DNA from: Paramacrobiotus metropolitanus
Taxonomy: Eukaryota > Tardigrada > Eutardigrada > Parachela > Macrobiotidae
Direction: 5' to 3'
Assembly: GCF_019649055.1 (NCBI RefSeq)
Contig: NW_026570221.1
Span: 2,976,001-3,040,000, forward strand
DNA: 64,000 nt
Shown here: positions 7,355-32,655 of the stretch, in pieces
Numbering within the stretch: the stretch's first letter is position 1
How the letters are laid out: the number at the start of each line of letters is the position of its first letter
Program-made: the position numbers and the translations under genes
The notes under the pieces: model-generated
What the model saw: the letters and a program-made list of their open reading frames with translations, nothing else
Databases searched by the model: none
Told to the model about the DNA's origin: nothing

Positions 7355-7358
7355 GTTC

Positions 7359-8122
7359 GACCAACGAACAGGAAGTCGACAGGAGGACGGCCAGAACCAG
7401 CCACTCCTGCCACAACAAGCGGTCCACGGTCGCCTAGATTTGAGAAGAAGAAGAGGACTCCCCCAGAAGCAGAGGAGCCTCCTTCGCAACGGTCACTCCC
7501 ACCTTGGCGAGGGCCAAGAGAAAACTTGGAGTTGAACCGCCCAACAAGGCCCATTCTACCAGCGTGGAGTGGTCCGCCAACGGACATAGACGTCCCTGGC
7601 CCTACCAGGCCAGGCCGGTCCATACTTAAATCAAAGAAGGCGGAACCACCGACTTTAACACTTCGTGGCTTACCGACCAAGAAGAAGAAGTCGTCGCCAA
7701 AGAGTTTTCCTGGTAAAGGACATGTGCTTTCACCACCGGAAGCACCAGTAATTCCGTCAGGAACAACACAGCCAGTGCGGGACGAACCTCCAACGAGGCA
7801 CCGTATCCGATTGACTCAAATGGAGTCATGGGATGACCCGCACAACTGGCTTGTAAGCGAGATCATAGAACTTGATCTACGCTTAAATCTGACTGAGGAA
7901 GATATGCGCCAGCGATTACGTGCCGGCGATCCTACATTAACGGACCGAGAGATTGACCGCATCAACCGCGGACAGTCAAAAAAACGACTAAGTTTTTTGG
8001 CCCGTCCAACGACGTGGCCCACCGAAAATTTTCTAAGTCTTTTGGCCCGTCCAACGACGTGGCCACTGGAAAATCGACTAAGTCTTTTGGCCCGTCCAAT
8101 GACGTGGCTCATCAAAAAATGA
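7359..8122 (+). pseudogene. Deletion-derivative copy of the large post-integrase ORF
   Basis: This plus-strand frame matches part of the 1438-residue ORF at 16055-20350 (its DNA at about 16602-17205) with many substitutions. Shared blocks include GRPEPATPATTSG, KKAEPPTL, FPGKGHVLSPPEAP and AGDPTLTDREIDRINRG. At CATCAACCGCGG (about 7968-7979) it leaves the ORF and enters the 45-bp minisatellite, which it translates as LLARPTTWP-type repeats until the stop at 8122. The same 12-mer occurs in both parent sequences, which points to template switching at a microhomology. The 5' part is missing. Confidence 0.75.
7980..8120. repeat. Three minisatellite units, inverted relative to 9557-9835
   Basis: CTAAGTCTTTTGGCCCGTCC-type units of about 45 bp occur three times. 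They are the reverse complement of units at 9557-9705, including the flanking CGCGGACAGTC block. They mark the tail of the plus-strand element fragment. Confidence 0.85.
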
Positions 8123-9161
8123 CTAAGTCCACATTGGAGAGCCAAAACCGGTTATACAGGACCCACACCACAGCAAAGGCCTGAAGCAAGGCCATACTAT
8201 TCTAAAACCCTGTATCCCGGCCCAGAGTATGTCAGAGACCGAGTTTGGACCGCCCTAACGGGCTTGGTCCATTACACCACTTGGTCCTCGGACTTAGAAA
8301 TTTTTCCATTATGGCCCTCCTGGACTTAGAAAATTTTTGGACCTAGGCGCATGACCAAACCGGCATGCAAGGCCAAAACCGGTCCAAGTTAGAGACCCAT
8401 ATGGGCCATCCAAACGGAATTGGTCCAAGCATACGATTTCGGCCACAGGAGCACCTCTCCTGTCCAGAGCCATCACTATGGCCCTCCATGGACCGCCCAA
8501 CCGGGCTTGGTCCACCATAATCAGGAAGGGGACAACCTGTCCTTGCGCATGCAACCGTGCCTTCCATACACCGCACCGCTGGATATACTTCACTGGACCC
8601 CTGTGGACATCTCTGGGAACCGTCGCCCCGGATTCACAGGACCAGACATATCCTACCGGATAAAGCGGACCGTTGACTAGGACCCCTGTGGACAAAAGCG
8701 GCCCTGTGGTACACCTAGTCGGAATAAGCCTTTTGTTTTGTCTAGTTTTTTAACCAAACCTGGTTTTTCTAGACTTATTAACCAAAGATGATGTTTTTAT
8801 TTAGCCATTATCCAAAGGAATTGGCTTCGGGATCTCTAACTATGATCTTTCTTTAATTCTCACCGGAATTGTGATCTTTTTAATTTCGATGTTTAACCTA
8901 TGAGCCTTATAAACTTTATTTTTTTTACTTGTTCGACCAACCAAGCCTTCAAACCCCACTGGAACCCCCAGCAACCAGAGTGCACTCCAGATTTCGGCCG
9001 TTTGGCGCACTGCACCGCGGGTCTGGAGGAAGCGACCCTACCGGGTTTAGAGACAAAGTGGCATCCGGCCCTACCGGGTATCGGATCCTGGCACCCTACC
9101 GGGTTGGCCAGGGGCAGAGTCGGAAGGTGCTCGCAGGAGCTCCCACTCCCGCCCAGAGGCA
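8123..9161 (+). other. 3' untranslated region of the plus-strand element fragment
   Basis: No convincing gene. GGCC-rich up to about 8700, then AT-rich. It leads directly into the LTR at 9162. At 8228 the sequence CAGAGTATGTCAGAGACCG nearly repeats the 3'UTR/LTR junction at 9153-9173 (CAGAGGCATGTCAGAGACCG) and then diverges. This may be a second, aborted internal/LTR junction. Confidence 0.5.
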
Positions 9162-9549
9162 TGTCAGAGACCGCTCACTCGAGGCGGTAGACACCTCTTG
9201 TGGCTTTCTCTGTCGCCCGCCCGCACACGGCAACGCCGTTCGTGCCGCGCTATTACGCTGCTTACTCAGCGTATACTTTGTCTACGCTGACCAATCAGCG
9301 CATTTCTCTGCACTCTTGGGGGCGGAGCCCTGTGCCTACGGGCGATTCCATGCTTTGCAGCATCAGCTGTTGCATACCCGCAGCACGCGGAATCATTATC
9401 ACAATTCCTTGATAGCGCACTGCAGGCACTTTTTCCACAGCTTTTCCCACATCGGGTTTTCTGTTGGTTTTGTGTTGTTGTTGCTTTATTGTTATCACAA
9501 TAAAGGCTATTTGCCCCATTTTCCATCTGCTTCTGTGTCATATCTGACA
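9162..9549 (+). repeat. LTR, 388 bp, plus orientation
   Basis: Starts TGTCAGA and ends TCTGACA, the TG...CA inverted termini of an LTR. It carries a CCAAT box (GACCAATCAGC), a GC-box-like GGGGGCGGAG and AATAAA in its 3' part. I count two differences from the copy at 32268-32655: G/T in TCTTGTGGC versus TCTTGTTGC, and A/G in TATCACAATT versus TATCACGATT. Open frames inside it are incidental. By order it is the 3' LTR of the plus-strand fragment. Confidence 0.88.
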
Positions 9550-9556
9550 TGGTCAT

Positions 9557-9835
9557 TGGGCCACGTCATTGGACGGGCCAAAAGACTTAGTCGATTTTCC
9601 AGTGGCCACGTCGTTGGACGGGCCAAAAGACTTAGAAAATTTTCGGTGGGCCACGTCGTTGGACGGGCCAAAAAACTTAGTCGTTTTTTTGACTGTCCGC
9701 GGTTGATGGCGGGCCAAATGGACTTAGTCGTTTTTTCTACGGTCCAAGGTGTATGGCGGGCCAAAAGGACTTAGTCGTTTTTTCGACGGTCCAAAGTTGA
9801 TGGCAGGCCAAAGTGGGTCCGTCTCACTGGCCGTG
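9557..9835. repeat. 45-47 bp minisatellite in the element 3' region
   Basis: About six units of the type GACTTAGTCG...GACGGGCCAAAA. Units near 9560-9705 match those at 7980-8120 in reverse complement. Units towards 9835 are more diverged. It belongs to the 3' part of the minus-strand element. Confidence 0.85.
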
Positions 9836-10614: not shown

Positions 10615-11064
10615 CTATCCCTGCCCTCCTTGTCCGGCTTGGTCGCCGTCGCCCAACCCAGGGTGGAGTGGGTCGACGACGCTTTCCTCCATGGCCGCCA
10701 ATTCCTGTTCTGTCAGGTTTTGTTGATTTTGGCTGGAGGTGCTGGCTGGCTGGACTTCTTGGTCTGGTTGGACAGCCTGGGTCTGGGCGTGTGTGGACGA
10801 TCCCGTTGAGGATCGCTGGGTTTGAAACTTCGTTGGAAGTTTCCTCGTTGCTGTTCGATTAACGAACACTTCCGCATTGTCGTCGAAGTCCGTTGGACGT
10901 TTATAGCGGTAATCTTTGACGTGGCTCCTGAATACGTTCAGGGCACTCTGGATTTTGACTCCCGCTTCGATTTCGTGGATCTGGTTTCCCAGGAGAGCCA
11001 CTTGGGTCAATAGTCGAGGAACAATCTGTCCTTGCCGGTAGGCAACTTCAAGTCCCAGTGGCAA
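10615..11064 (-). CDS. Retroelement accessory ORF, last (149 residues)
   Basis: Not recognised. The first half is helical (RLLTQVALLGNQIHEIEAG, then FRSHVKDYRYKRPTDFDD); the second half is Gln/Ser/Glu-rich and probably disordered. It overlaps the end of the preceding ORF (11007-11549) in the -1 register, and its first codons fall where that ORF still reads coherently. It is therefore more likely the C-terminal continuation of that protein after a frameshift than an independent gene. Confidence 0.55.
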   Translation of the reverse strand: MPLGLEVAYRQGQIVPRLLTQVALLGNQIHEIEAGVKIQSALNVFRSHVKDYRYKRPTDFDDNAEVFVNRTATRKLPTKFQTQRSSTGSSTHAQTQAVQPDQEVQPASTSSQNQQNLTEQELAAMEESVVDPLHPGLGDGDQAGQGGQG

Positions 11065-11549
11065 TGTAGATGACCAAGTCTGGCGGCAAAGATGCGTATC
11101 ATCGTGCCGTTATAGGAGTATTTCTGCGTTTGTGGGTCATCCTTATGGTCAGCCAGTTTCCATGGGATGTCTATGGCGGCTCTGCATGCTGCGATGATGA
11201 AACTGGCGTTTGCGTCCGGTAGGACAAACTGAGCCAGGTATTTGACGACGTCAAGTTGGTCGTCCTTGATGTGCAGTTGGCACAAGTCATTCCAGTCCGG
11301 CCGGGTGATAGGCTGTCCGAGTAAGTTCACGTCCGTGATGCTCGATAGAGCATTGTCACGGACCATCGGGTAGCCCTCGCGGTTCTGAGTGTGCTCGGCC
11401 ATGCTGAAATCGCGAGGCCAATCTTTCCGCTGCATTTCCATTTCTAGTCCGGACCGGGTGACGAAGGTTTGCAGGTTTTGAACCATGGCGTCCACTTGGG
11501 CCCATTTGTCCCTGGGGTACGGGATGGCACCCATGATATAATCCGTCAC
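11007..11549 (-). CDS. Retroelement accessory ORF, globular helical (180 residues)
   Basis: Not recognised. Mostly helical with many Trp, Cys and His residues (WNDLCQLHIKDDQLDVVKYLAQF, LGHLHCHWD). No zinc-finger spacing or membrane segment is evident. It lies in the same frame as the upstream ORF (11589-12584), separated by one TAG at 11591-11589, and the sequence between the TAG and this ATG (DQGINIRPLPHRVVTDYI) reads as coding. A Gag/capsid-like role is possible from position and composition but is not shown. Confidence 0.55.
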   Translation of the reverse strand: MTDYIMGAIPYPRDKWAQVDAMVQNLQTFVTRSGLEMEMQRKDWPRDFSMAEHTQNREGYPMVRDNALSSITDVNLLGQPITRPDWNDLCQLHIKDDQLDVVKYLAQFVLPDANASFIIAACRAAIDIPWKLADHKDDPQTQKYSYNGTMIRIFAARLGHLHCHWDLKLPTGKDRLFLDY

Positions 11550-11588
11550 AACCCGGTGGGGAAGTGGCCGGATGTTGATGCCCTGGTC

Positions 11589-12584
11589 CTATGCATACTT
11601 GTAAGGATCGAAGTCCGAAGTGCTGCCAGATGGTGCAGGCTGGACCGGTAGGTCCGCCGCTGGCGATGTGGCCTCAGTCTCCATTGGTATTTGGATACTG
11701 ATATTGTGGGCCACCGAGCTGACACTTCGTTCTGGTCGCTTGGTGGACTGCGCGACAATCAGGCTGGACTCCGTCTCGTTTCGCTTCCCGGGTGATGTGC
11801 GCGGTTGGCGCTCGGGCTGGCTACGGCTTTGGCGTCCACTTTGGTCCTGGTTACGGCTCTGGATCTGGTGACGTAAGTCATCTGGGTTCCGCGGTAGCGG
11901 TGCCAGTGGCGTGCGCTGTTCAGTGCGCGCTGGCTGGTATTGGCCTTTTAAGGCGTCCAGCAATCCACCTTCCAACAGCTGTCGAGTCACCTGGTCAACC
12001 ATAGCCTTGTTGATGTTTTCCAGGATCGTTTTGTCGAACCCCTGGTTGTATTCCATCGGTATGGGCAACTCGTATCCGTAGGATCGAGAGCCTGATGATG
12101 GCCGCTGCGACTGGTGTGCGTAACTGCTCGGGGCGGCCGTTAGGCCACGCCCTGAGGACTGGTCAGATCCCGAGGTGCGGGATCGACGTTCCCGGTCCCG
12201 CTCGTCCTTCCGTTCTCGAGCCGATTGGCTGAGTGGAGGAATCGGAGTTCCGGTACTGCACCAGCCAGGTTGTCGGGCGCCACTACGTTGCATATAGAGG
12301 TCGTAGATCTCTATCTGCTCATGATCCCTCAATAGGGGAATCAGGTGGCTTCCGTCGCGGCTGGTCATGTGTATGTATGCGTCAAAGTTGCCTCTCACCA
12401 CTTCCAGGTAGAAGCAGTAGGCTCGTTCGCTCTCGTCGCGGAAGCCCGGCCGCAGGTGGTATGCGCAGGGGATCAACTCCCGTGAGGAATTGTCCCGGCG
12501 GTGAGGATGTGTCATACTATCGCCGCTGTTGCGTCTGCAGTCCGAGCATCGCGGTTCGTATTTCTGCTGCGGTGTAAGTCCCAT
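11589..12584 (-). CDS. Retroelement accessory ORF with Cys cluster (331 residues)
   Basis: Not recognised. Starts MGLTPQQKYE, then CSDC and later CAYH within the first 45 residues, a possible small metal-binding site. An aromatic-rich folded segment follows (AYCFYLEVVRGNFDAYIHM), then Arg/Ser/Gln-rich linkers (SRSQPERQPR) and a Pro-rich tail ending KYA before an in-frame TAG. A helical stretch ILENINKAMVDQVTRQLLEGG lies mid-protein. About 190 bp of apparently non-coding DNA separate it from the preceding ORF. Confidence 0.55.
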   Translation of the reverse strand: MGLTPQQKYEPRCSDCRRNSGDSMTHPHRRDNSSRELIPCAYHLRPGFRDESERAYCFYLEVVRGNFDAYIHMTSRDGSHLIPLLRDHEQIEIYDLYMQRSGARQPGWCSTGTPIPPLSQSARERKDERDRERRSRTSGSDQSSGRGLTAAPSSYAHQSQRPSSGSRSYGYELPIPMEYNQGFDKTILENINKAMVDQVTRQLLEGGLLDALKGQYQPARTEQRTPLAPLPRNPDDLRHQIQSRNQDQSGRQSRSQPERQPRTSPGKRNETESSLIVAQSTKRPERSVSSVAHNISIQIPMETEATSPAADLPVQPAPSGSTSDFDPYKYA

Positions 12585-12774
12585 TCTCTGTGGTAACAGA
12601 AATGAAACTTGCAGAATAAGGTAAAGTCCGCTTTCTATGACGGGTCCCTATGATAATTACGCCCTATGTTTTACGTCCCTACGATTTTAAGTGTGATTTG
12701 TTAACTAGGCTTTTCTTGCCCGGTGAATTATTTCGGGATCACCCCCTAGACCCTATGCGAGTTCTACGCCTAGG

Positions 12775-13842
12775 TCACTGATGGTAGGTACGCCGCTTCT
12801 TCTTGGACTTGGTTGAGGCCAAGGAGTCGGATTCGGTGGGACGAGGGCCGTAACGATCCGGTGGGATGTTATGTTGTCTGTACCGCTGCTGGGCCTCGGG
12901 CTCATCAACAGTTTGCTCGAGCCATCCATCGTTTAACATCTTCCGTACGACGTATCTGACGTCCTCGCAAATAGGGTACAACCCGCTAGGGCGGCCCTGG
13001 TTCGGCATGTATGCTATCCCATCAATAAATTGTGGATGGTGCGAGATGACGTTCAGATCGTATCGGCCCAGGAGCTGGTTGGCTATCTCGCCTCGTGTGA
13101 GGCCTAATGGGTGCTGAGTGGTGGTCAGCACTGTGAGAACGGCGTTACGCCACTCCCAATAGCCTTGAGGAGCTTTATCCACTTTTTCCGGTGGGAAAGT
13201 GTAGAAGATCTGCGTATTGGGCAGATGGGTCCGTAATATAGCTCCTTCATGGTAGGCCATCTGTATGTACTTCATCACTTTGGACTTAGACAGCGGTGGG
13301 CCATTCCATTTCTTGATGAGTTGGAAGGCCAAGCCCCCTGTAGCAAGGGTTGTACCCGTTTGGGACAACGCCTTTAAGGCCGCCTTGATATACGCCCATC
13401 GCTTGTCAGAGTTGGAGATCCGCGGCTTTTTGGAAGGATCTCCGCCGGGCCATTTCCTGGCCACCTTTGGTGTTGGTGGCGAGACGTAGTCAATCCGCGG
13501 TATGGCCGGGCACAGGTCAGGTAAAGTCCATGGAATCTCACCATCATCTGATTCTGGTGAGGTCGAGTCGCGCATCCTTTCCCGTTCGGGCGATGCAGCG
13601 CTTCCACTTGGCTCAGCGTTATCTACGCTGGCTGGACTTTCTTGGCTAATACCTTCTGCGCTGCCTTGGTCCTGATCGGCGCCTTCTGCGCCACCTTGGT
13701 CCTCCATGTCCTGGTAACCGTTAGGTGGTTGGTTCTCATCACCGGGTGGTATTTCCGTGTCATGGTCCGGTGGGAGGTCCATGGTAAGTTTACCAGGGCT
13801 TTGGTCATCATCGTCATCAGAGTCGGACTTTTGGGACTCCAT
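12775..13842 (-). CDS. Retroelement accessory ORF, acidic N-terminus and winged-helix-like core (355 residues)
   Basis: Not recognised. The N-terminus is very acidic (SDSDDDDDQSP), and the same frame stays open and acidic upstream of the ATG to about 13985. Residues from about 145 contain two segments that look like winged-helix folds: AYIKAALKALSQTG...FQLIKKWNG...KVMKYIQMAYHEGAI and AVLTVLTTTQHPLGLTRGEI...VRYVVRKMLNDGWLEQ. The C-terminus is basic (KSKKKRRTYHQ). The preceding 848-residue ORF overlaps it in the register from which a -1 shift leads here. A nucleic-acid-binding role is inferred only from the fold guess. Confidence 0.55.
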   Translation of the reverse strand: MESQKSDSDDDDDQSPGKLTMDLPPDHDTEIPPGDENQPPNGYQDMEDQGGAEGADQDQGSAEGISQESPASVDNAEPSGSAASPERERMRDSTSPESDDGEIPWTLPDLCPAIPRIDYVSPPTPKVARKWPGGDPSKKPRISNSDKRWAYIKAALKALSQTGTTLATGGLAFQLIKKWNGPPLSKSKVMKYIQMAYHEGAILRTHLPNTQIFYTFPPEKVDKAPQGYWEWRNAVLTVLTTTQHPLGLTRGEIANQLLGRYDLNVISHHPQFIDGIAYMPNQGRPSGLYPICEDVRYVVRKMLNDGWLEQTVDEPEAQQRYRQHNIPPDRYGPRPTESDSLASTKSKKKRRTYHQ

Positions 13843-16169
13843 GGTTTGGTCCTGGTCCGGCTCTTCTTGTTCTTCGTCCTCTGAGTCCTCCGGTTGTGAG
13901 TCCTCAGAGTCCGAATCGCTTGGCTGCGGTGAGGGGTCTTTTTCCCCCTTTTCTTTGAGGCTGTGGCCTTTCGGCTCTTTGTGGATGTGACCGATAAGGC
14001 TGGCGAAGGAGGTCTGGACCGGCCAGCTGCGTTAGGCAGTGACACTGTGTCCCTGGGCACAGGCCGAGTTCCGGCTGCGCGCATCTCATCCTCCGCTTCT
14101 TGCCGTGCAGCCATTTCTCGTCTTGTAACTGACGGTCGAGGAGGCTTTTCTACCGGCAGTTTCTTTGGACCTGGCAGTTTGGCCACTTGGGAGATCAAGT
14201 ATGCCTCCTTGGCTCGGCCGGTCAACTTATCTTTTGGCGGTCCAACCGCTTTCTTCCTATCCGGGTCCCATTTTGTGCCCACGTCGTGTGACACGTACAG
14301 AGACCGTTGGGTCTTCTGCGGGATGAACCCGGGGATGGTGAAGCGGATGTGTTCCTCCCGGTAGGCGTTGGTCGTTTCTAAAGTTCCATCCTTGACCAAT
14401 GCTAATAACTCGTCAAATATGATCTTTTCCAGTTCCTCCTGGTCCGCCACTCCTTTGTAATAGAGAGCGTTGATGGTCCTGACGATGTCGACCAAGTTGG
14501 AGCCTCTTGGGTTGTGCAGGTAAGCAATGGTCCTGCATATTTGATGAAAGGGGTAATCCCGGCTGCGGGAAAGCCCTGCTGGCCGATGAGGCACGTGAAG
14601 CTCCATCATGCTGGTCCAGTCACGGTGTGTGCGGACCAGAAGTCCCATGTCCAAAATGAGAGTTACTACCCGCCGCATAAAGGGTGCCGTTAGTACACGG
14701 TCCGCTGGCGGTAGCACTCTGAATTCCTCTCCATGTGCCATTCTGGCTCGGAGAACTCGGACGAGACATTGGTACATGTCTCTTCCTGTTGTACGTCTCA
14801 TGATCCTGGCCGCTGCCACCCATTGGCGCACATATGGACCCGTTGGGATCTCAATGTGCGTGGCCTCCGGTCCAGGGTTGGGAAGCTCAGCTTCGTCGTC
14901 TCCCGGCGTGGGGAGCATTGTTTCCTCCGAAGGCGGTTCACCTTCGGGAACTGGCTCGTATTCCTCTTCTTGCCATGGACGATATGTTGCTGGCTCCTCT
15001 GATTTGTTTGGACTGTCCGATAGGACTTGAACGTCTTCATCGCCGGACAGCCGTTTCTCAAGCTGGGCGATCTTGGCCTCGTGACTTTTCTTGTCCTTGG
15101 CCGCTTGTTTCTTCTGGCGGTTCCTTTCGGCCTCTGGGTTTGATGTTGGCCGAGGTGTGGTCGCCTGGCTCCCACTCGGTTGAGGGGAGTTTGGACGAGT
15201 GGCCGGTTTGGCCCTCGATTGAGGAGAAGTTGGGCGAGAGGCCGGTTTGGCCCTCTCCGGGTTTTTGGCTTTCCTTGGCTGCTTACTCCGTTGGGAGTTA
15301 GCTGAGTGAATCACGCCCATGCCAAGTGCCAAACTGTCCAATGTCCCTGTTATGGGGAAGGTTACTGGACGGCCAAAAGGTATGTCGCCGACGTTGGCAG
15401 GCATATTCGTCAAGTTTATCGGAGCAGCGGCCGTTGGCCCTGTTCCGGACTGACTTTGGCCTGTTGTATCCTGCGCCGACGAAATGGCCTTAGGTGGCTC
15501 CTCCGGTTGTGCCGGTTCTGGCTGCGCTACGGCCACAGGTCCAGACGGAGAAGTATCCATTGGCTCTAAAGCCGCTGGTGGTTGTGCCTGCGTCTTTGGC
15601 GGTACCACTGTTGGTGGCGCATTTGACGACAGGGTTTCAGCCATTCTAAAGTCTTCCTCCGGTGGGGGAAAGGCTTTCTGGTTGCGACGGCGCCAGTAAT
15701 CGTCTATCATCCGTAGGACCAAGGATCGGAGCATTTCGGTTATCATGTCGTATTCTTCCATGCGATTCTGCTCCTTGGCCTCCTGTCTCTTTGTGAGCAG
15801 GAACGGATATTGCCGTCGTTCATTATGGTCAGCATGGATCAGTAAGTGTCTCTGCTCGATAGGAGTGAGAGCACTCATGGGCATCAAGGCCGCGTCGGCT
15901 TCCACTTCTTGGGCCGAGACAGCCGGAGTTATCCGCACCATCATTCTGGCCGATTCTGCGACCACTGGTGCAGGAGTCCTAACCGTGACCGTTACTGGCT
16001 CAAGTGTTGTACCTGCGGACACCGTAGGTGCTGCGATTCGTTCCACAGTAATGGTCATCGTTGGCTCTGGAGGAGGTGTTGTATCCATCCTCTCTTTGGT
16101 TGGGGACTTGCCTGGCCGGCTCGGTATGAACCTGGCAGGCGCCGGTTCGATGGCCGGCATACTGGGCAT
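13623..16169 (-). CDS. Retroelement accessory ORF, middle section (848 residues)
   Basis: Not recognised. It begins in a Pro/Thr-rich linker (the frame is open and coherent upstream to about 16260). A helical hairpin follows (TPIEQRHLLIHADHNERRQ, LRSLVLRMIDDYWRRR), then Pro-rich linker, a basic coiled segment (RNRQKKQAAKDKKSHEAKIA) and an acidic stretch. A folded domain with winged-helix character (AARIMRRTTGRDMYQCLVRV, ELLALVKDGTLETTNAY, REEHIRFTIP) comes next. After about residue 750 the reading becomes Arg/Thr-rich while the overlapping frame becomes acidic and regular, so the true C-terminus probably continues in the 355-residue ORF. Confidence 0.6.
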   Translation of the reverse strand: MPSMPAIEPAPARFIPSRPGKSPTKERMDTTPPPEPTMTITVERIAAPTVSAGTTLEPVTVTVRTPAPVVAESARMMVRITPAVSAQEVEADAALMPMSALTPIEQRHLLIHADHNERRQYPFLLTKRQEAKEQNRMEEYDMITEMLRSLVLRMIDDYWRRRNQKAFPPPEEDFRMAETLSSNAPPTVVPPKTQAQPPAALEPMDTSPSGPVAVAQPEPAQPEEPPKAISSAQDTTGQSQSGTGPTAAAPINLTNMPANVGDIPFGRPVTFPITGTLDSLALGMGVIHSANSQRSKQPRKAKNPERAKPASRPTSPQSRAKPATRPNSPQPSGSQATTPRPTSNPEAERNRQKKQAAKDKKSHEAKIAQLEKRLSGDEDVQVLSDSPNKSEEPATYRPWQEEEYEPVPEGEPPSEETMLPTPGDDEAELPNPGPEATHIEIPTGPYVRQWVAAARIMRRTTGRDMYQCLVRVLRARMAHGEEFRVLPPADRVLTAPFMRRVVTLILDMGLLVRTHRDWTSMMELHVPHRPAGLSRSRDYPFHQICRTIAYLHNPRGSNLVDIVRTINALYYKGVADQEELEKIIFDELLALVKDGTLETTNAYREEHIRFTIPGFIPQKTQRSLYVSHDVGTKWDPDRKKAVGPPKDKLTGRAKEAYLISQVAKLPGPKKLPVEKPPRPSVTRREMAARQEAEDEMRAAGTRPVPRDTVSLPNAAGRSRPPSPALSVTSTKSRKATASKKRGKKTPHRSQAIRTLRTHNRRTQRTKNKKSRTRTKPWSPKSPTLMTMMTKALVNLPWTSHRTMTRKYHPVMRTNHLTVTRTWRTKVAQKAPIRTKAAQKVLAKKVQPA

Positions 16170-20350: not shown

Positions 20351-20622
20351 CGTTGAATGGGGCGCTGTCACGAGACGAATCACGCGGTGTTAGACTCCTA
20401 CCTACTATGTTAGTTCAATGTACGGCTAGCTACTTATAAGCTACCGTGACAGATATTGGACCAAGTAAGGCTACTTCTAAGCTACTGGTCCTTTAAGTTC
20501 AGGTTAGTTAATTTAGGTTAGTTAATTATGGTAGCAGCTCAGTTAATTGAGCTTAGATCACCGTGAGCTGAGTTAGTTAGACTAGTTCTAAGTCTACCAT
20601 GTCAGATATTGTTAGAGATTAT
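20351..20622 (-). promoter_or_regulatory. Spacer between integrase and accessory ORFs with LTR-end/PBS echo
   Basis: Non-coding, about 270 bp, rich in TTAGTTA and CTTATAAGCTAC repeats. On the minus strand at about 20609-20594 it contains ATATCTGACATGGTAG, identical to the LTR end plus the first bases of the primer-binding site at 32276-32261. A degenerate copy (CCAATATCTGTCACGGTAGC) lies at about 20460-20441. It could be a relic of an internal LTR/PBS, or a start site for a shorter RNA that expresses the downstream ORFs. Confidence 0.5.
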
Positions 20623-25869: not shown

Positions 25870-27159
25870 TTAGACCAAGTCGTCCAGTTCTTGGGCGAAT
25901 GGTCCGTATTGTGCGGCAATTTGCGGCCACGTTAGTGGTTCGCCTTTGTCTTCAAGCCAGCCCTCTTCTAGGGCAAGGAGTTGGTTAGCGCGGTATTCCA
26001 GGAAATTTCTGACTCCTGTGAACCAAGTTTTGTAGCGCTGGACCAGGTTCTCTTTAATTTCTCTGTCAGGCACCGGCCGTTGGCCCGGTGCCTCTGGTAT
26101 CGGGATAGTCTTTACTATCCCGTGATTTGGCTTGAGTATGCCTGCACGGAATTGGGTCATGTACCGCTCAATTGCGTTATGGACGCGCAGCTCCCATATG
26201 AGGCTTTCAATGGTGTCCAGGCATTCCCGGCAAGTGAAAGTTCGGACAGTCGGTTCGCGAAGCCGATTTATCCGCACCTCGTTGTCGGGTCCCGGTGCCT
26301 CTGGTATCGGGATTGACTTTACCGCGTCCCAAACGATTTCTTCGTTTGGCTTAAGGATGAAGGTAAACTTGGAGTGGAGATAGTCACAGCCAAGTAGTAC
26401 GTGCACGTCCGTTAACGTCGGTTGGACGAAGAACGTGTGGTGGCTCTTGTATCCCTGCAGTGTCACCGGTACGGTGCAGCAGTGGGAGACCACGAAGGCG
26501 GTTTGTCCGCCAACACCAAGGATTTTGGTGTTCCGTCCTAATGGCTCTGTTTTGATGCCATTGGCGGTGCAGAATTGCTGGCTGATGAGGGATGTCTCCG
26601 CTCCAGTGTCCAGCATTGCGAGCGTGTGGACTGGTCCGATTTGGACTTTGTGCGTCCATGCTCTAACGGTTTTCGGTTTGCAATTCTCATCCAGACCAAC
26701 TGTCACTTCCCGCATCACTGGTACAATGGGGATTAGCGACACTGGTCCTGGATCGTCAGGAGCGTAGTGGGGTGAAGGTGGCTCCTGTTGGACAGACTCT
26801 TCCTGTGGTGGTGTTTCCGCAACCCGTAGGGTGGAAAACATACTTTTGGTGTTAAGGAAGGTCCGTGAACTTTTTATGGTTCGCACCGTTGGTGTGGTGC
26901 CGAGGGGTTGTCCGCGGTTCTGGAGCTCACAGATCCGGGGAGTAGACGCCTCGAGAGGTTCGGTTGTCCAGTCTTTTAGGGATCCGACCTCGCCGGCGGT
27001 TTCGGTTCCGGTCGTAGGTCGGGTGAGTTGCCGATACTCCCCGACCTTAGGCGTTTCCCGCGGTTGGGCTGGCCCGGCTAGGGCCGCCGCCGCCGTTGCC
27101 ATTTGGCTGCACCAGCTGGCCCGGCTAGGGCCGCCGCCGCCGTTGCCATTTGGCTGCAC
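25870..27159 (-). CDS. Retroelement aspartic protease ORF (429 residues)
   Basis: Retroviral-type aspartic protease: active-site AMLDTGAETSLI (Asp at about 184), flap-like ILGVGGQTAF and the C-terminal VLLGCDYL. It would cleave the Gag and Pol precursors. The N-terminal 130 residues are a linker. The frame is open further upstream to 27297, overlapping the end of Gag by about 10 nt around a GGGGG run. A perfect 47-bp tandem duplication (27069-27162) lies at the first codons and alters the register relative to Gag. The first Met codon given here is GTG, so the protein is more likely made as a Gag extension. Confidence 0.82.
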   Translation of the reverse strand: MQPNGNGGGGPSRASWCSQMATAAAALAGPAQPRETPKVGEYRQLTRPTTGTETAGEVGSLKDWTTEPLEASTPRICELQNRGQPLGTTPTVRTIKSSRTFLNTKSMFSTLRVAETPPQEESVQQEPPSPHYAPDDPGPVSLIPIVPVMREVTVGLDENCKPKTVRAWTHKVQIGPVHTLAMLDTGAETSLISQQFCTANGIKTEPLGRNTKILGVGGQTAFVVSHCCTVPVTLQGYKSHHTFFVQPTLTDVHVLLGCDYLHSKFTFILKPNEEIVWDAVKSIPIPEAPGPDNEVRINRLREPTVRTFTCRECLDTIESLIWELRVHNAIERYMTQFRAGILKPNHGIVKTIPIPEAPGQRPVPDREIKENLVQRYKTWFTGVRNFLEYRANQLLALEEGWLEDKGEPLTWPQIAAQYGPFAQELDDLV

Positions 27160-27162: not shown

Positions 27163-27287
27163 CTGGTCCGGTATGGGTGGTAGCGCTGGCCTCTCATTGG
27201 CTGGCGTCTGGTATCCCTGCTTTGGACCATTCTGGCGATTTCCGCCACCGAGCCCACTTCCTGAGCCGGCGGACTGCCTTCGGCTGC

Positions 27288-29306
27288 CTATCCCCCATTA
27301 CCACGTGGTGGTCTGGGTTGTTTGGGTGGCACTAAGCCGAGGCGGTTAGGGTTGGCTGACCCGGTAGGGTAGCCTTTTTGATAGCGATTTCGCCAATCCA
27401 AATACCATTTTCGGTTCGGATTTTCGCCATATGGCCTATTCGCGTAGCCACAGCCGTCGGTTGGGTGGTTTCCCCACAGGCAGTGGCTGCAAGTGATGTT
27501 ACCATCTTTGGCCCATCGCTCGAACATGCGCTCGACTCTGCCGATATACATGTCCTCTTGTCTGCGGGCCTCTTCGGGGCTCAGAGTCTGGCGTTGGCCG
27601 CTCTGGCCTCCCGGGCTTCGGTTTTGTCCTCCAGGGCTGTTGCCGCTTTGGTTTCCGTTAAAGCTGGCGTTTTGGCCCTTGGAGAACTTGCCCTTTGGTC
27701 CTCTGCCGCTGTTGCCCTGGCTGTAGCCAAAGTTGCCCTGGTTTCGGGCTTGGCCATAGCCGCCACTACCGCCGTTGGGCGGTGTGGGCCCACGTTGTGG
27801 GGAGGCTAAGTTCAAGGCCACGATAGCGGCGTATGTTGCCTCAATCTGGGCTTGTGTAGCCTGCGGGGGATAAAGTGCCGGTTGTTGCGGTACGACTTGG
27901 GCTGGTGGCGTTTGTATGGCCGTTCGGATGGTTGGGTATCCGCGGCCCGCCTTCCCTTCGTACTCCGGCTTTCCCATTGTGTATTGCCGGACGTAGTCCC
28001 GGAATTCTGCCGGTGACTTCGGTATCCGGATGTCCAGCGCGCGTCGCAGTTCTGGCTCCTTCACATTCTCTCTCAAGAATTGAAGTGTCATAGTGTCGTC
28101 CAAGCCAGCGCGCGTCTGGAGAGTCAATATGGCGTCGTAGTACTGCTCAGGAGTTTCGGTCAAGTGTTGGTAGTACCGATGGGTGATTTCTCCCATGGCA
28201 GTGGCCTGCTGATTATCGTCACCATATCGAGTGGCAAATTTTTGGAGCCACTCTTCTACTGGCCAGCCGTCCTCGTCTTCGCGATTGGCTTGGCCAGTGT
28301 ACCATTCCTTTACAGGGTCCGATAGGGCCATGTAAATGCGGCTCATAAAGTCCGGATCTGGTTTGTTCAGATCGGACGACTGCTTACAGATCCGTCGGAC
28401 CTGTGCAAGCCATCCTTTCACCATTGTCTTGTTGCCGTCAAATTTTGGCAACTCGGTGCGGACTTGAGCTCTCGCGGTGGCTTTTCCCATCTCTTGGGCT
28501 ATTTCCTTTATTTGCTCTCTGGTTGAGAGAGCTGGACTGGCCGGTGGTGATGGGGCAGGTGTTGGCTGCTGAGGTATCAGCGGCACTTGTTGAGGTTGGG
28601 CCCACGTTGGTTGGCCCGGTACGATCTGGATAGCTCCGTTGGACGCCATCCATGCGTATGCTCCATTCGGGAGCTGGATCAGCATGGGCGCATTCTGGCC
28701 CAGGCTTGGTTGGGCTGCTGGTCCTGTTGGCATGGCCGCTGTTGGCGGTATGCCTGATGGTTGGGGCATGTTTTGGCCCGTGGGCGTGGTTTGGCCCATC
28801 TGTGGCTGAGCTTGGCCCGTTGGGGCTGCCGCCGTGATAGGAGGGCCGAATAGGCTTAGTTGGCCTACTAATGGTGGTTGCACCGTTGGTGTACCACCTT
28901 GGCCTCCTATCTGTCCTTGCCTGGCCGATGGCCCGAACATAAGGCTCGGCTGGCTGGTCCGGTTTGGATCCACGCTGCTAGTGTGAGCCTGGCTTATGGC
29001 CGGTTGTGGACTGAAGTTGAAGTCCATGTTCGGGAATATTGACGGGTACAAGGACGGGTACGATGGCTTTGATCCGTAGTTGCTGTGGCTCGGATCAAAG
29101 CTTGGCCCGCTTGACGTAGACGGATAAGTCTGCGTTGCGGGCGTCACTATCGTCGTTGGACCGATAGTGGCAGTTGTGGTGACCGGGACTGGTGGTGGCG
29201 GCAGTGTTACTGTCGCCGTTGATGTTCCACGGTCCACTGGGCTGGGAGGCGCAGGTATGGTTGGCCCCTTTGGAGGATCTCCAACCGATGGCCCTTCCAC
29301 AGCCAT
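27288..29306 (-). CDS. Retroelement Gag capsid/nucleocapsid (672 residues)
   Basis: A good start context (CAACATGGC) precedes a Pro/Thr/Ser-rich N-terminal 260 residues. The capsid-like domain covers about 265-460: ELPKFDGNKTMVKGWLAQV, DPVKEWYTGQ, WLQKFATRYGD and LRENVKEPELRRAL, the usual retrotransposon Gag pattern. A Gly/Asn/Gln-rich RNA-binding stretch follows, then a zinc knuckle CSHC-x4-H-x4-C at about 606-619. It ends in a basic tail and TAG at 27290-27288. It would build the particle and bind genomic RNA. It follows ORF2 in the same frame after a single TAA and 15 nt. Confidence 0.9.
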   Translation of the reverse strand: MAVEGPSVGDPPKGPTIPAPPSPVDRGTSTATVTLPPPPVPVTTTATIGPTTIVTPATQTYPSTSSGPSFDPSHSNYGSKPSYPSLYPSIFPNMDFNFSPQPAISQAHTSSVDPNRTSQPSLMFGPSARQGQIGGQGGTPTVQPPLVGQLSLFGPPITAAAPTGQAQPQMGQTTPTGQNMPQPSGIPPTAAMPTGPAAQPSLGQNAPMLIQLPNGAYAWMASNGAIQIVPGQPTWAQPQQVPLIPQQPTPAPSPPASPALSTREQIKEIAQEMGKATARAQVRTELPKFDGNKTMVKGWLAQVRRICKQSSDLNKPDPDFMSRIYMALSDPVKEWYTGQANREDEDGWPVEEWLQKFATRYGDDNQQATAMGEITHRYYQHLTETPEQYYDAILTLQTRAGLDDTMTLQFLRENVKEPELRRALDIRIPKSPAEFRDYVRQYTMGKPEYEGKAGRGYPTIRTAIQTPPAQVVPQQPALYPPQATQAQIEATYAAIVALNLASPQRGPTPPNGGSGGYGQARNQGNFGYSQGNSGRGPKGKFSKGQNASFNGNQSGNSPGGQNRSPGGQSGQRQTLSPEEARRQEDMYIGRVERMFERWAKDGNITCSHCLWGNHPTDGCGYANRPYGENPNRKWYLDWRNRYQKGYPTGSANPNRLGLVPPKQPRPPRGNGG

Positions 29307-29321
29307 GTTGACTTGGTAATT

Positions 29322-30263
29322 TTAGTGATGATACACTGGCTCGCGGTAGAAGCGTTGGCCCTGCCGCAGAGCCTCGTCGACTTTTTCTTGTCGGCGTTTT
29401 GTATCCGAGTCTGGAAAGGTATGATAGGACGGTGGTTCTGCGGACAGCTCGGAGTTGATGTCTACGAGGTGTGATTTCTCCGCATCTAAGCAGGCGCTTT
29501 CCGTGCTTAGTCTTTCCAGTTCCTCGTTCATTTCGGTTATGCGTTGGGTGGCCGCCTGGTAGTCTTTGACCAGGCCGGCGTTATTGGCCTCCAATGTGAT
29601 GATCCGGTCATGTTGGCCCTGGATCACTTGTTTAGCTTGGTTGAAGGCCTGCTCCAATTGGACGAAGTTTTGGTGTCCTATGGTGCTGTTCTGCTCAAGT
29701 TGTGCCCGAATGGTCGCTTCGGTATTGAGCTGGCTCTGGAGGGCAACGATCTGTTGCTGGAGTTGCACGTTCTGTGCCTCCTTCTGTTGAACCGTTTGGC
29801 TCAACAATCCTCCTTGTTGGATCGTCTTCATGAGATTTTGGTGACTCTCATAAAGAAGATTGCAGCCGTTCAGCAGGCGGTTGATTTCGTCCTGCAGGTT
29901 GGCCAAGTCTTCGGTGAGACGCTCGTTTTCCCTCTGTAGGCGGTCCGCCTCAGAGTCGGTATCGTCAATGGTTGTCCGGGCCGCAGTCAAGTCATCCTTG
30001 GCTTTGGCCAGCTTAGTCCTCGTAGAGGTGAGCAAAGCTTCGAGTCCCGCCACAGCCATTTCTAGGCTGTGGATTGTCCTGTTGAGCTGGTCTCGCTCAG
30101 CGTTTGGACATGGTGACAACTTGAGCTGGGTTAGCTCAAGTTGGGTCTGGGCCAGTATGGCCGAGACACGTTTAGCCTCTGCGTCCGTTTGGACCGCAAG
30201 GTCTTTGTGTCGGCAGATCTCATCCTGCATCCAACGTTCGGATAGCAGGGCCGCTTCTGCCAT
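29322..30263 (-). CDS. Retroelement ORF2, coiled-coil with PPxY motif (313 residues)
   Basis: Not a standard Ty3/gypsy protein. Nearly the whole length is heptad-rich coiled coil (DRLQRENERLTEDLANLQDE, LQQQIVALQSQL). Near the C-terminus EPPSYHTF contains PPSY, the PPxY late-domain type that recruits Nedd4-like ligases in retroviral budding. The frame is open upstream of the ATG to about 30390, overlapping the end of ORF1, so ORF1 may continue into it by a -1 shift. It could be a scaffold part of a multi-piece Gag. Confidence 0.7.
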   Translation of the reverse strand: MAEAALLSERWMQDEICRHKDLAVQTDAEAKRVSAILAQTQLELTQLKLSPCPNAERDQLNRTIHSLEMAVAGLEALLTSTRTKLAKAKDDLTAARTTIDDTDSEADRLQRENERLTEDLANLQDEINRLLNGCNLLYESHQNLMKTIQQGGLLSQTVQQKEAQNVQLQQQIVALQSQLNTEATIRAQLEQNSTIGHQNFVQLEQAFNQAKQVIQGQHDRIITLEANNAGLVKDYQAATQRITEMNEELERLSTESACLDAEKSHLVDINSELSAEPPSYHTFPDSDTKRRQEKVDEALRQGQRFYREPVYHH

Positions 30264-30346
30264 GTCCGCCAGCTGTTTAGTCAGGTCCCTTACTGTGGTC
30301 CTGAGTTGGTCGACTTCGTCGATTTCTTCGAGCCGGGTTGCCTGGT

Positions 30347-31249
30347 TCAGCTTTGGCGGAATGACGTTTTGGCGCGGGTTGTGTCCCAGGAGGGCTGGTT
30401 AAGGTCCATCCTGGCTGTGGCCCTGTTAAGTTGGGCCAGGTCCACAATTGGCTCTCCGTCCGGTTTGGACGGGCCAGACGCGCCGATGACGTCATTGGTT
30501 GGCGATGGCGTTACGGGGGTTGAGCCATCGACTTCGAACATAATGAGCGACTGACTCATGGGCTGTTGGCCCTGGTCATGTGCATTTGGGCCAGCCTTTT
30601 TGGCTTGGCCCTTTGCCTTGCGTCCACCTTTGGCCGCCGTTGGTGCCTCAGGTTGGATCTGGTCCAAGCCCGGTAGGACTGGACGTGCTGTCAGATCCTG
30701 GACGTCAAGGTTGGACCGGGCCAACTTGTTTGGCCCTGGTCCGTCTGTGTGTGTCTTGTCCTCACTTGTGGCCGCCGTCGGCGCCGCAAGTTGGACTTGG
30801 CCCGGACCAGGTATGGCCGGTTGATGCGCCAAGTCCCGAGGGACACTGTTGGCCTGGGCCGTCCTATCGGCGCCAGGTTGGCTGTCCAGAGGCTGGTTGG
30901 CCTCGGACAGTCCGTCGGATGCCTCCTGGAATGTGTCGTCCCGGGTGGCGTCCAGACTTTCATCACTTGTCTTCAAGTCGGCCGGCAGGATTTGTCTGTC
31001 CCGCCTGGCTTTGGCCTCGACCGAACTCGTTGAGCCGGCCGAGTTTGGCTCGTCTGGTTCAGAACCGCTCTGTTTGGCCCTGCGGAAACCGTATGTTCCC
31101 GGTGGGTCGCGTGTGGCATAGTTCTTCCCCAGTTGCTTCTTGTATTCATTTGGCTGGCGCCCGTCCATTGGACTGAGCAATCTCCGTTGGAGTTGCTCAT
31201 GGCTGGTGTATGGCATCACCTTGGCCAAGGCGCTTTCAATTTGGCCCAT
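30347..31249 (-). CDS. Retroelement ORF1, matrix-like with myristoylation signal (300 residues)
   Basis: Begins MGQIES, which fits the N-myristoylation consensus (Gly2, Ser6) seen at the start of many retroviral matrix proteins. The first 60 residues are helical and basic (HEQLQRRLLSP, NEYKKQLGKNYA). The rest is disordered, rich in Pro, Ala, Asp and Gln, with repeated short blocks (PAIPGPGQVQLAAPTAA and VLPGLDQIQPEAPTAA). It is the first ORF after the leader. The function is inferred: membrane targeting of the particle precursor. Confidence 0.68.
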   Translation of the reverse strand: MGQIESALAKVMPYTSHEQLQRRLLSPMDGRQPNEYKKQLGKNYATRDPPGTYGFRRAKQSGSEPDEPNSAGSTSSVEAKARRDRQILPADLKTSDESLDATRDDTFQEASDGLSEANQPLDSQPGADRTAQANSVPRDLAHQPAIPGPGQVQLAAPTAATSEDKTHTDGPGPNKLARSNLDVQDLTARPVLPGLDQIQPEAPTAAKGGRKAKGQAKKAGPNAHDQGQQPMSQSLIMFEVDGSTPVTPSPTNDVIGASGPSKPDGEPIVDLAQLNRATARMDLNQPSWDTTRAKTSFRQS

Positions 31250-32249
31250 GGTATTGGGACTTAGAAAAATCTTGGTCTTGGTCCGGACCGGAACGGTGGG
31301 TTGGCTGTCGCTGGTTGGTGCTGTTCAGGTGTGCTAGAGCTTAGGATCAGCGTTAGCTCCCTATGGCCCTAGTTTACATTACTGACCAGTGTGACGTCAC
31401 GTACGAAATGGTCTTGCAATTAGCTCTACGTCACAAGTAGCGTGCCGTGAGCAAAATTTAAAAAACAATATGAGTCACTACGAGAGTTATAACACGGGGA
31501 AGTTTCCCACGTGTTCTGATTGGTCGAATTTTTATGGAAAATCACCACAGTGACGTCACGCGACTTTTCGCAAAATTTTCCGGCTGGACAAAATGGCGGT
31601 TGTTTTTCGCCGATAATTCATCAAAAGTCAAAGAAAATTTTCTCGAGAGTTCTGTTCTAATTTTCTAGGACAGAATTTTACGAGGAATCCAAAAATGCCA
31701 ATTTTAAGCAAATCGGATGAAAGGTTCAAAAGTTATAGGATTTTAAAGTACGGGTTCTTCCGAAAACTTCGAAATTTTCAAAGTTCTACGAAAGCCCTAC
31801 GACGCCACAGCAGGTCTTACCGGTCGTTTTTCGATCCAAACTGCTGCTCCGTCGTTCCACTTCACCCTCTTCTTCCGTGAGGGCCGCAGCGCACCCGATA
31901 GGGCGTAATGGAGTTACAGGACCGTACCGAACGCAGTTTTTGCGCCGGGAGCCAAAGCTGCGGGAGGCCTACTTTTAGGCGCTGACCCGTATCAACGCGA
32001 CCCGGTAGGGTGCTTAATTGGTAAACAGCGACGTACCCAACGCAGTTTTTGCGCGGGGAGCCAAAGCTGCGGGGGACCTACTTATAGGCGCCGACCCGTA
32101 TGAATAATCCGTCGCGCTGCAGACTTCCAGTGAAGTCTGTATGATGCCGGAAATGATGGTCGCGGGATTGCTGGCCTACTTATAGGCGATCAGCGTAGTT
32201 CGACCGTGTTGCCTTCACTGGGGATCAGAGGTCTCGTCGGAAAGAAAAC
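31250..32249 (-). promoter_or_regulatory. Leader of the giant element with hairpin repeats and CRE-like sites
   Basis: About 1 kb of non-coding sequence. Two copies of a block spaced 109 bp apart (31924 and 32033) share AACGCAGTTTTTGCGC, GAGCCAAAGCTGCGGG and a hairpin-forming CCTACTTATAGGC-type palindrome; a third hairpin core lies near 32180. These may be dimerisation or packaging structures. The palindrome TGACGTCA occurs at about 31389 and 31551. The AT-rich stretch 31500-31780 nearest ORF1 shows nothing I can assign. Confidence 0.55.
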
Positions 32250-32267
32250 CGAACGATGCTGCTACCA
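32250..32267 (-). other. Primer-binding site
   Basis: TGGTAGCAGCATCGTTCG starts exactly at the end of the LTR on the minus strand. TGG is the complement of a tRNA CCA end, and the reverse complement reads like a T-loop arm and acceptor strand. I could not name the tRNA. Confidence 0.75.
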
Positions 32268-32655
32268 TGTCAGATATGACACAGAAGCAGATGGAAAATG
32301 GGGCAAATAGCCTTTATTGTGATAACAATAAAGCAACAACAACACAAAACCAACAGAAAACCCGATGTGGGAAAAGCTGTGGAAAAAGTGCCTGCAGTGC
32401 GCTATCAAGGAATCGTGATAATGATTCCGCGTGCTGCGGGTATGCAACAGCTGATGCTGCAAAGCATGGAATCGCCCGTAGGCACAGGGCTCCGCCCCCA
32501 AGAGTGCAGAGAAATGCGCTGATTGGTCAGCGTAGACAAAGTATACGCTGAGTAAGCAGCGTAATAGCGCGGCACGAACGGCGTTGCCGTGTGCGGGCGG
32601 GCGACAGAGAAAGCAACAAGAGGTGTCTACCGCCTCGAGTGAGCGGTCTCTGACA
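32268..32655 (-). repeat. 5' LTR of the giant element, 388 bp
   Basis: Reads TGTCAGA...TCTGACA on the minus strand. Same length as the LTR at 9162-9549 and differing at only two positions I could find, but in the opposite orientation. It is followed at once by the primer-binding site, which identifies it as the 5' LTR. The outer end abuts host sequence ACTGTAC at 32656. Confidence 0.9.

What the first reader, a model, noticed from the sequence alone, without database searches (positions are those of the whole stretch)
7355..32655. Giant Ty3/gypsy-type element with about 10 kb of accessory coding sequence after integrase
The sequence shows Gag, protease, YIDD reverse transcriptase, RNase H and D,D35E integrase in Ty3/gypsy order. 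It also shows two extra ORFs before Gag (a matrix-like ORF1 and a coiled-coil ORF2) and six ORFs (1430, 848, 355, 331, 180 and 149 residues) after integrase. Known large gypsy-like elements such as Ogre and Burro carry extra ORFs, but I recognise none of these proteins and none has an envelope-type membrane segment. The inferred intact element would exceed 23 kb.
Basis: partly seen in the sequence, partly recalled or inferred. Interest (0 to 1): 0.88.

Follow-up and report, generated by a model that had tools for sequence, protein, structure and literature searches.

The report
Giant tardigrade retrotransposon with two extra genes
This is one copy of a very large (about 23-25 kb) copy-and-paste mobile element of a water bear that carries, besides the usual virus-like genes, two big genes of unknown origin that selection has kept, which makes it a test case for what such extra genes do.

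Summary
Confirmed and refined. The window is from the tardigrade Paramacrobiotus metropolitanus. Positions 32655->9557 (minus strand) hold a Ty3/gypsy-type LTR element. The ORF count is wrong: in other copies the two 'pre-Gag' ORFs are the N-terminus of one ~1.4 kaa Gag, and the 'six accessory ORFs' are two genes, ORF3 (~2.5 kaa) and ORF4 (~675 aa), broken in this copy. Both are under purifying selection (dN/dS 0.07-0.27, like pol); ORF4 relatives persist at dS about 1. A GGGAAAC site plus hairpin marks a probable -1 gag/pol frameshift; invariant splice-acceptor-like sequences precede ORF3 and ORF4. No ORF has a membrane-like segment, so no env was found. Searches found no relative of ORF4 or of the ORF3 parts tested outside this genome. 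The window copy's 3' end (7353-9553) is inverted and partly from another copy. Function of ORF3/ORF4 is inferred only: probably nucleic-acid/chromatin-facing or particle proteins. New variant of a known kind.

The parts
32268..32655 (-). 5' LTR (TGTCAGAGACCG...ATCTGACA), 388 bp
   Evidence: Ends defined by comparison with both LTRs of six copies
32259..32267 (-). Putative primer-binding site TGGTAGCAG directly after the 5' LTR
   Evidence: Sequence; 9 nt shared by the 4 copies printed; match to the 3' end of initiator tRNA-Met is recalled, not tested
30347..31249 (-).
   Evidence: dN/dS 0.35
29322..30263 (-).
   Evidence: Sub-threshold coiled-coil matches; fused to Gag in other copies; dN/dS 0.13
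27288..29306 (-). Gag capsid/nucleocapsid part with a CX2CX4HX4C knuckle (CSHCLWGNHPTDGC)
   Evidence: no Pfam match; dN/dS 0.19
27053..27059 (-). GGGAAAC slippery heptamer, followed by a hairpin
25870..27159 (-). Aspartic protease region (Pfam gag-asp_proteas, RVP)
   Evidence: dN/dS 0.21
22279..25401 (-). Reverse transcriptase, RNase H, integrase zinc finger
   Evidence: Pfam PF00078, PF17917/PF17919, PF17921; dN/dS 0.16
20623..22230 (-). Integrase core (rve, D,D35E) and C-terminal tail; same frame as RT in 4 of 6 copies
   Evidence: dN/dS 0.13
20386..20622 (-). pol-ORF3 spacer with CTAAC repeats and LTR-end/PBS-like motifs
16055..20383 (-).
   Evidence: dN/dS 0.20
13623..16169 (-). ORF3 part 2 (848 aa), with winged-helix-like stretch 14319-14570 (weak)
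   Evidence: dN/dS 0.27
12775..13842 (-). ORF3 part 3 (355 aa), weak RPA_C match, basic C-terminus
   Evidence: dN/dS 0.10
11589..12584 (-). ORF4 part 1 (331 aa), preceded by acceptor-like TTTCATTTCTGTTACCACAG
   Evidence: dN/dS 0.21
11007..11549 (-). ORF4 part 2 (180 aa), lowest dN/dS of the twelve ORFs
   Evidence: dN/dS 0.07
10615..11064 (-). ORF4 part 3 (149 aa)
   Evidence: dN/dS 0.16
9557..9813 (-). 3' UTR tandem repeat, 45-47 bp unit; last sequence in the element's own orientation
7960..9161 (+). 3' UTR of the element type in inverted orientation
9162..9549 (+). Inverted LTR, 2 mismatches in 388 columns from the 5' LTR
7353..7971 (+). Fragment of ORF3 of a different copy (89% to 16602-17220; 93% to copy C57)

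Best explanation
A giant, env-less Ty3/gypsy (Metaviridae-type) LTR retrotransposon family of Paramacrobiotus metropolitanus. Shown from sequence: the layout LTR - gag - pol - ORF3 - ORF4 - 3' UTR - LTR; multi-copy occurrence; purifying selection on all coding parts; a window copy that is broken and has an inverted 3' end. Inferred from conserved signals: full-length RNA is made from the 5' LTR; Gag (myristoylation-like N-terminus, coiled coil, capsid, CCHC knuckle) is made from it, and Gag-Pol by -1 frameshifting at GGGAAAC; ORF3 and ORF4 are made from spliced subgenomic RNAs, as env would be; reverse transcription and integrase-mediated insertion follow. Inferred, less certain: ORF3 (long proline-rich and helical stretches, repeated basic clusters, winged-helix-like segments) acts on nucleic acid or chromatin in the particle or the nucleus, and ORF4 is its partner or a second particle/assembly factor. 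Both serve the element's own replication, because selection keeps them about as strictly as pol.
For: Collinearity and LTRs at both ends in 6 of 6 copies; of 39 other 5'-end places, 18 have ORF3 DNA downstream, 18 the 3' part, 12 both. LTR pairs differ by 3-29 mismatches in 389-395 columns, so some insertions are recent; 4-bp target duplication perfect in 2 of 6. dN/dS pooled over 7 copies: ORF3 parts 0.20, 0.27, 0.10; ORF4 parts 0.21, 0.07, 0.16; pol parts 0.13-0.21; other frames about 0.8-4, except one reverse frame (0.16-0.49) that shares the wobble position. ORF4 in 10 of 10 distant loci fetched: dS 0.43-1.19, dN/dS 0.19-0.27; at the one tested, integrase was found where the giant layout predicts it. 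GGGAAAC plus hairpin (-14 to -21 kcal/mol) in the window and 5 of 6 copies; pol frame -1 to gag in 5 of 5 copies where one search lists both. Acceptor-like sites: ORF4 27/27 nt and ORF3 51/51 nt identical in 7 of 7 copies, the ORF4 site tying for first of 671 YAG sites by an ad hoc pyrimidine score. No membrane-like stretch in any ORF. Ty3 is the best solved match of the RT.
Against: No transcript, protein or mobilisation data. ORF3/ORF4 have no recognisable domain: winged-helix-family matches are all below cut-off (RPA_C 0.016, linker histone 0.067), and both structure predictions failed (mean pLDDT 39-41). Pfam does not recognise Gag. The ORF3 acceptor-like site ranks only 51st of 671, and a splice donor is only weakly indicated. 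No purine tract is visible right before the 3' LTR in the six copies, which second-strand priming would need. Perfect target duplications are missing in 4 of 6 copies. None of the six copies has every frame open, and in three of the five copies with both gag and pol frames stops lie between them; since the assembly is ONT/Canu (PMC11191345, passages), part of the breaks may be assembly errors. 21 of 39 other 5' places showed no ORF3 DNA match in the capped lists, and 2 of them look like a short form without pol.
Confidence: 0.78

Rival explanations
1. The ORFs at 10.6-20.4 kb belong to a separate element nested in an ordinary gypsy element.
For: The window copy has a scrambled, inverted 3' end.
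Against: 6 of 6 other copies carry the same ORFs in the same place inside the LTRs; 18 of 39 other 5' ends have ORF3 DNA downstream, 11 of the 18 at 16.8-17.0 kb; a distant subfamily keeps the integrase-ORF4 spacing.
Confidence: 0.03
2. ORF3 and ORF4 are host genes captured recently (transduction), passengers without a role for the element.
For: NCBI/UniRef name one ORF3 copy as a 'titin-like' protein of the host.
Against: The search with the last 1575 aa of ORF3 gave 1 hit, a copy of this element itself; the ORF4 search none; purifying selection, for ORF4 over dS up to about 1.2. The protein search reaches only relatives sharing 5-residue words and scored about 8000 candidates each.
Confidence: 0.08
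3. ORF3/ORF4 are a highly diverged envelope or other entry system, and the element is an endogenous retrovirus-like agent moving between cells.
For: Position after pol, acceptor-like sites and a myristoylation-like Gag N-terminus resemble retroviral organisation; Env-independent cell-to-cell transfer of LTR elements is reported (PMC11952523, abstract).
Against: No 19-residue window above 1.39 Kyte-Doolittle in any ORF; the reported sORF2 is a short transmembrane protein (abstract), unlike ORF3 or ORF4. Signal peptides were not predicted with a dedicated tool.
Confidence: 0.07
4. The ORFs are open by chance or composition (GC-rich strand) and encode nothing.
For: Proline/serine-rich stretches; no Pfam match above cut-off.
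Against: dN/dS 0.07-0.27 in frame against about 0.8-4 in four of the five other frames; 14 of 72 ORF4 matches cover at least 95% of the query without a stop.
Confidence: 0.02

Closest known systems
Burro (giant gypsy-like elements of planarians; PMC6431247, passages read)
   Same: Animal Ty3/gypsy-type element with an internal region over 20 kb and a much enlarged coding capacity
   Different: Burro carries extra domains (BIR, BCL2, MATH, dUTPase, env homology) within a ~4.9 kaa polyprotein, env homology between gag and pol; here the extra genes follow integrase, Pfam lists none of those domains, and LTRs are 0.39 kb
Ogre/Tat and Retand plant gypsy elements (PMC6431247 and PMC11963269, passages)
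   Same: Long internal region; Retand has a long pol-3'LTR stretch, tandem repeats there and a probably DNA-binding accessory protein domain (TRP28)
   Different: Ogre: internal region 11-13 kb, LTRs 1.9-6.5 kb. Retand: internal region 7.4-12.9 kb, accessory ORFs mainly antisense. Here sense ORFs, about 10 kb, 22-24 kb internal
Bdelloid rotifer LTR elements with captured ORF3 (PMC5408684, abstract)
   Same: Non-env ORF3 after gag and pol
   Different: Those ORF3s are GDSL esterase, DEDDy exonuclease or env-like; here two large proteins without recognisable domain
Ty3 (yeast)
   Same: PR-RT-RNase H-INT order; best solved relative of the RT
   Different: Ty3 has gag and pol only and is far smaller (recalled)

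Membership tests
Ty3/gypsy (Metaviridae) | Domain order PR-RT-RNase H-INT with D,D35E integrase | tested here: met
Ty3/gypsy (Metaviridae) | RT closer to Ty3 than to other retroelement groups | tested here: met
   Solved-structure search only: Ty3 232 bits, CaMV 153, MLV 105, HIV about 25. The RT tree holds 110 rows found by similarity, no named reference clades
Ty3/gypsy (Metaviridae) | LTRs with TG...CA ends | tested here: met
   6 of 6 copies
Ty3/gypsy (Metaviridae) | 4-6 bp target-site duplication | tested here: inconclusive
   Perfect 4 bp in 2 of 6 copies, 3 of 4 bases in one, none in three
Ty3/gypsy (Metaviridae) | tRNA primer-binding site after 5' LTR | tested here: inconclusive
   TGGTAGCAG present; the matching tRNA was not searched for in the genome
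Ty3/gypsy (Metaviridae) | Polypurine tract before 3' LTR | tested here: inconclusive
   No purine run seen by eye in the 60 nt before the 3' LTR of six copies
Giant LTR element (>20 kb internal region, criterion of PMC6431247) | Internal region above 20 kb without LTRs | tested here: met
   About 22.4-24.0 kb in six copies (arithmetic)
Burro | BIR/BCL2/MATH/dUTPase or env homology | tested here: not met
   No such match among the Pfam families listed at E up to 1 for the twelve window ORFs (25 of 33 listed for ORF2)
Ogre | LTRs of 1.9-6.5 kb | tested here: not met
   LTRs 383-392 bp
Errantivirus / env-bearing gypsy | Env with membrane segment after pol | tested here: not met
   Highest 19-residue hydropathy 1.39, in ORF4; no dedicated membrane predictor was run
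Troyka | 3-bp duplication and CG...CG ends (PMC12440569, abstract) | tested here: not met
   TG...CA ends

The most novel reading that the evidence does not exclude
ORF3 and ORF4 are a new kind of retroelement accessory machinery: a two-protein system, expressed from spliced RNAs, that lets a gypsy-type element package, protect or chromatin-target a genome of 23-25 kb without any envelope, and that works alongside a gag-only satellite form having the same ends.
Probability: 0.3. Interest if true: 0.8.

Novelty: new variant of a known kind. Interest (0 to 1): 0.6.

Why it matters
In the passages I saw of the 2019 review of giant transposons (PMC6431247), planarian Burro is the only LTR element given an internal region above 20 kb. 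This family is another animal case by that measure, in another phylum, with a different solution: short LTRs and two large sense genes after integrase, both under strong selection. It asks what limits the genome size of retroelements and what non-env accessory genes do. It also warns annotators: one ORF3 copy stands in NCBI/UniRef as 'titin-like'.

Tried and rejected
Nested insertion: rejected for the six copies. Internal repeats in ORF3: nine ORF3 segments (five helical, four winged-helix-like) together with five Gag and ORF4 segments were compared by hhalign; only one pair passed 15% probability (22%), so no repeat claim. Structure prediction of an ORF3 piece and of ORF4 part 2 from single window sequences: mean pLDDT 39.4 and 40.5, so no fold search was run. 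PDB searches of ORF3 part 3, of ORF4 and of a 5-row ORF4 profile: nothing below E 0.99. Pfam on the five rows of that profile: best 0.042, unrelated. Viral contigs with ORF4 and with ORF3 part 3: no relative. Rfam and tRNA scans of the window: none (the tRNA scan used the bacterial setting). Structured spacer before ORF3: z -1.49, 16 of 200 shuffles fold as well, not notable. Genome searches with the ORF3 and pol proteins did not complete, so their distant subfamilies are unmapped. The first LTR comparison included a few bases beyond the LTR ends and overcounted mismatches; one search repeats it with trimmed ends, and its numbers are used.

Rows dropped before a count: for I took 39 of the 42, 48 and 41 rows each; the window's own row and short secondary rows (2, 8 and 1) were left out. 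In some searches only matches above a length or identity limit were used.

In-print search: PMC full text only. 'Paramacrobiotus' + 'retrotransposon' gave 0 papers; 'tardigrade' + 'retrotransposon' + 'gypsy' 11; 'tardigrade' + 'LTR retrotransposon' 18; giant/LTR retrotransposon/Burro/Ogre, at least 3 of 4 terms, 206 with 20 listed; further listings. I saw listings and the passages, abstracts or section named in the Full report section; none of what I saw describes this element. Subscription papers and Repbase were not searched.
Full report
What was checked. The window lies in G000:C1:2976001-3040000 of a 169.8 Mb genome. A protein search with part of ORF3 returned one protein, 'titin-like' of Paramacrobiotus metropolitanus, at 87% identity over 26% of the query, and contig lengths in the pol search (4,484,719 and 949,340) equal those of contigs C1 and C57, so the host is that tardigrade. 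A paper on the species gives a 170 Mbp genome, a Canu assembly and ONT reads (PMC11191345, passages); single-base breaks in repeats may therefore be assembly errors.

Anatomy in the window. The 5' LTR begins at 32655 and the element runs on the minus strand to 9557. At 9557-9813 there is a 45-47 bp tandem repeat. Beyond it the sequence turns round: 7960-9553 (plus strand) is the 3' UTR and LTR of the same element type, the LTR differing from the 5' LTR by 2 mismatches in 388 columns; 7353-7971 is an ORF3 fragment of another copy (89% to this one, 93% to copy C57). Either a rearranged insertion or a misassembly; not resolvable here.

Other copies. Genome DNA searches gave 42 matches for the 5' end, 48 for the 3' part, 41 for ORF3 DNA and 40 for integrase DNA (40 candidates were scored in each, out of 339, 436, 75 and 258, so these are lower bounds). 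Of 39 other 5' places, 18 have ORF3 DNA 13.5-20.8 kb downstream (11 of them at 16.8-17.0 kb), 18 have the 3' part and 12 have both. Six copies were fetched in pieces; all six show LTR, gag, pol, ORF3, ORF4, 3' UTR and LTR in order. From the coordinates they measure 23.1 (C7), 24.5 (C6), 24.7 (C57), 24.7 (C244), 24.7 (C9) and 23.9 kb (C1b). LTR-pair mismatches are 7, 29, 8, 6, 7 and 3 in 389-395 columns, with 0-18 gap columns. Perfect 4-bp target duplications: 2 of 6.

Genes, not fragments. In other copies the window's small ORFs are joined: ORF1+ORF2+Gag in one 1420-aa frame in one of six copies, partly joined in the other five; RT with integrase in 4 of 6; the end of ORF3 part 1 with parts 2 and 3 in one frame in 2 of 10 copies seen over that stretch (C6, C110), with part of the joints open in others; the three ORF4 parts in one frame in 5 of 6. 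So the layout is gag, pol, ORF3 (about 2,500 aa by adding the parts), ORF4 (about 675 aa). None of the six copies has all frames open. A genome search with ORF4 gave 72 matches (66 candidates scored of 759), identity 100% down to 45%; 14 of 72 cover at least 95% of the query without a stop.

Selection. Pooled over seven copies, dN/dS is 0.35, 0.13 and 0.19 for the Gag parts, 0.21, 0.16 and 0.13 for PR, RT and INT, 0.20, 0.27 and 0.10 for ORF3 parts and 0.21, 0.07 and 0.16 for ORF4 parts. A second count on DNA alignments gives 0.08-0.36 in frame and about 0.8-4 in four other frames; one reverse frame is low (0.16-0.49) because it shares the wobble position. Ten distant ORF4 loci were fetched: against the reference, dS is 0.43-1.19 and dN/dS 0.19-0.27 in 10 of 10, on the best matched stretch of each. 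For one of them (C29) the giant layout predicts integrase about 8-10 kb upstream; a 2 kb stretch taken there holds the end of RT (89% over 114 aa) and integrase (79% over 534 aa). The other nine were not tested. The accessory gene ORF4 is thus old in this family.

Expression signals. GGGAAAC, followed by the Gag-frame stop and a hairpin of -14 to -21 kcal/mol, is found in the window (27053-27059) and 5 of 6 copies (the sixth lacks the stretch). The pol frame is -1 to gag in 5 of 5 copies where one search lists both, although in C6, C9 and C1b stops lie between the two frames or the Gag frame is shifted before the site. Before ORF4, TTTCATTTCTGTTACCACAG lies 3 nt upstream of the ATG, identical in 7 of 7 copies, tying for first of 671 YAG sites by an ad hoc pyrimidine score; before ORF3 a 51-nt stretch with CTAAC and CAG is identical in 7 of 7 but ranks 51st. 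Several donor-like GT sites in the leader are conserved, among them GTAAGA in at least 6 of 8 copies, weak evidence. Splicing is therefore inferred.

Proteins. Gag begins MGQxxS and has a CCHC knuckle (motif names recalled). No ORF has a membrane-like stretch. ORF3 has several basic clusters and weak matches to two families in two separate segments (linker histone 0.067, RPA_C 0.016; that both are winged helices is recalled). Structure predictions were not usable. In the protein search the last 1575 aa of ORF3 gave only a copy of this element and ORF4 nothing; PDB (of ORF3 only the last part was searched) and viral contigs (same limit) gave no relative.

Placement. RT scores Ty3 232 bits, CaMV 153, MLV 105 among solved structures. 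The pol search found 841 proteins, 120 listed; the best are three of P. metropolitanus at 59-65% identity, then others at about 37%. In a tree of 110 rows (109 of the 120 plus the window) the four P. metropolitanus rows form a clade (support 100) on a long stem (0.71), with the nearest outside row at path 1.51; no named reference families were included, so the lineage within Ty3/gypsy is open.

A partner form. At C27:131075 (fetched as L044 and L043) a shorter element of about 13 kb shares LTR and leader (86% over 1366 columns; the LTR alone 94%) and 3' end (92%) but has its own Gag (about 33% identical, E 2e-77), traces of PR, no RT or integrase match at E up to 0.01, and short ORFs in the ORF3 position (41% over 61 aa, E 0.006) and the ORF4 position (no significant match). 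C46 shows the same spacing (not fetched). It looks like a gag-bearing satellite of the giant element.

Known or new. Papers seen: PMC6431247, PMC11071193, PMC11191345 and PMC11963269 (passages), PMC5408684 (outline and abstract), PMC12440569 (outline, abstract and one section), PMC11952523 (outline and abstract). By these, Burro has an internal region up to 25 kb, Ogre 11-13 kb, Retand up to 12.9 kb. The element is of the Ty3/gypsy kind by domain order, RT and LTR ends; it is not Burro, Ogre, Troyka or an env-bearing element by the tests listed. I rate it a new variant of a known kind, with an open question about two large conserved proteins.

Noticed in passing
L044 and L043 (G000:C27:130900-144300); perhaps also G000:C46:351474-363153: About 13 kb short form with the giant element's LTR, leader and 3' end but its own diverged Gag, no RT/integrase match, and short ORFs in the ORF3/ORF4 positions: looks like a gag-bearing satellite.
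   Followed up: partly
window 7353-9556: 3' end of the window copy is inverted (LTR 2 mismatches in 388 from the 5' LTR) and joined to an ORF3 fragment of another copy; real rearrangement or assembly error.
   Followed up: partly
window 20386-20622: The pol-ORF3 spacer contains ATATCTGACATGGTAG, the junction of LTR end and primer-binding site, with further variants there and in copy C244; might mark an old fusion of two elements.
   Followed up: no
P0001 (NCBI/UniRef 'titin-like', 1173 aa): A copy of ORF3 is annotated in public databases as a host titin-like protein.
   Followed up: no
window 2246-2992: Tandem repeat of 102 bp, 7.3 copies, open as a 34-aa repeat in a 333-aa ORF (2143-3144).
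   Followed up: no
window 50096-50312 and 54713-54929: Inverted repeat of 217 nt, 77% complementary, 4.4 kb apart; perhaps an old DNA transposon pair.
   Followed up: no
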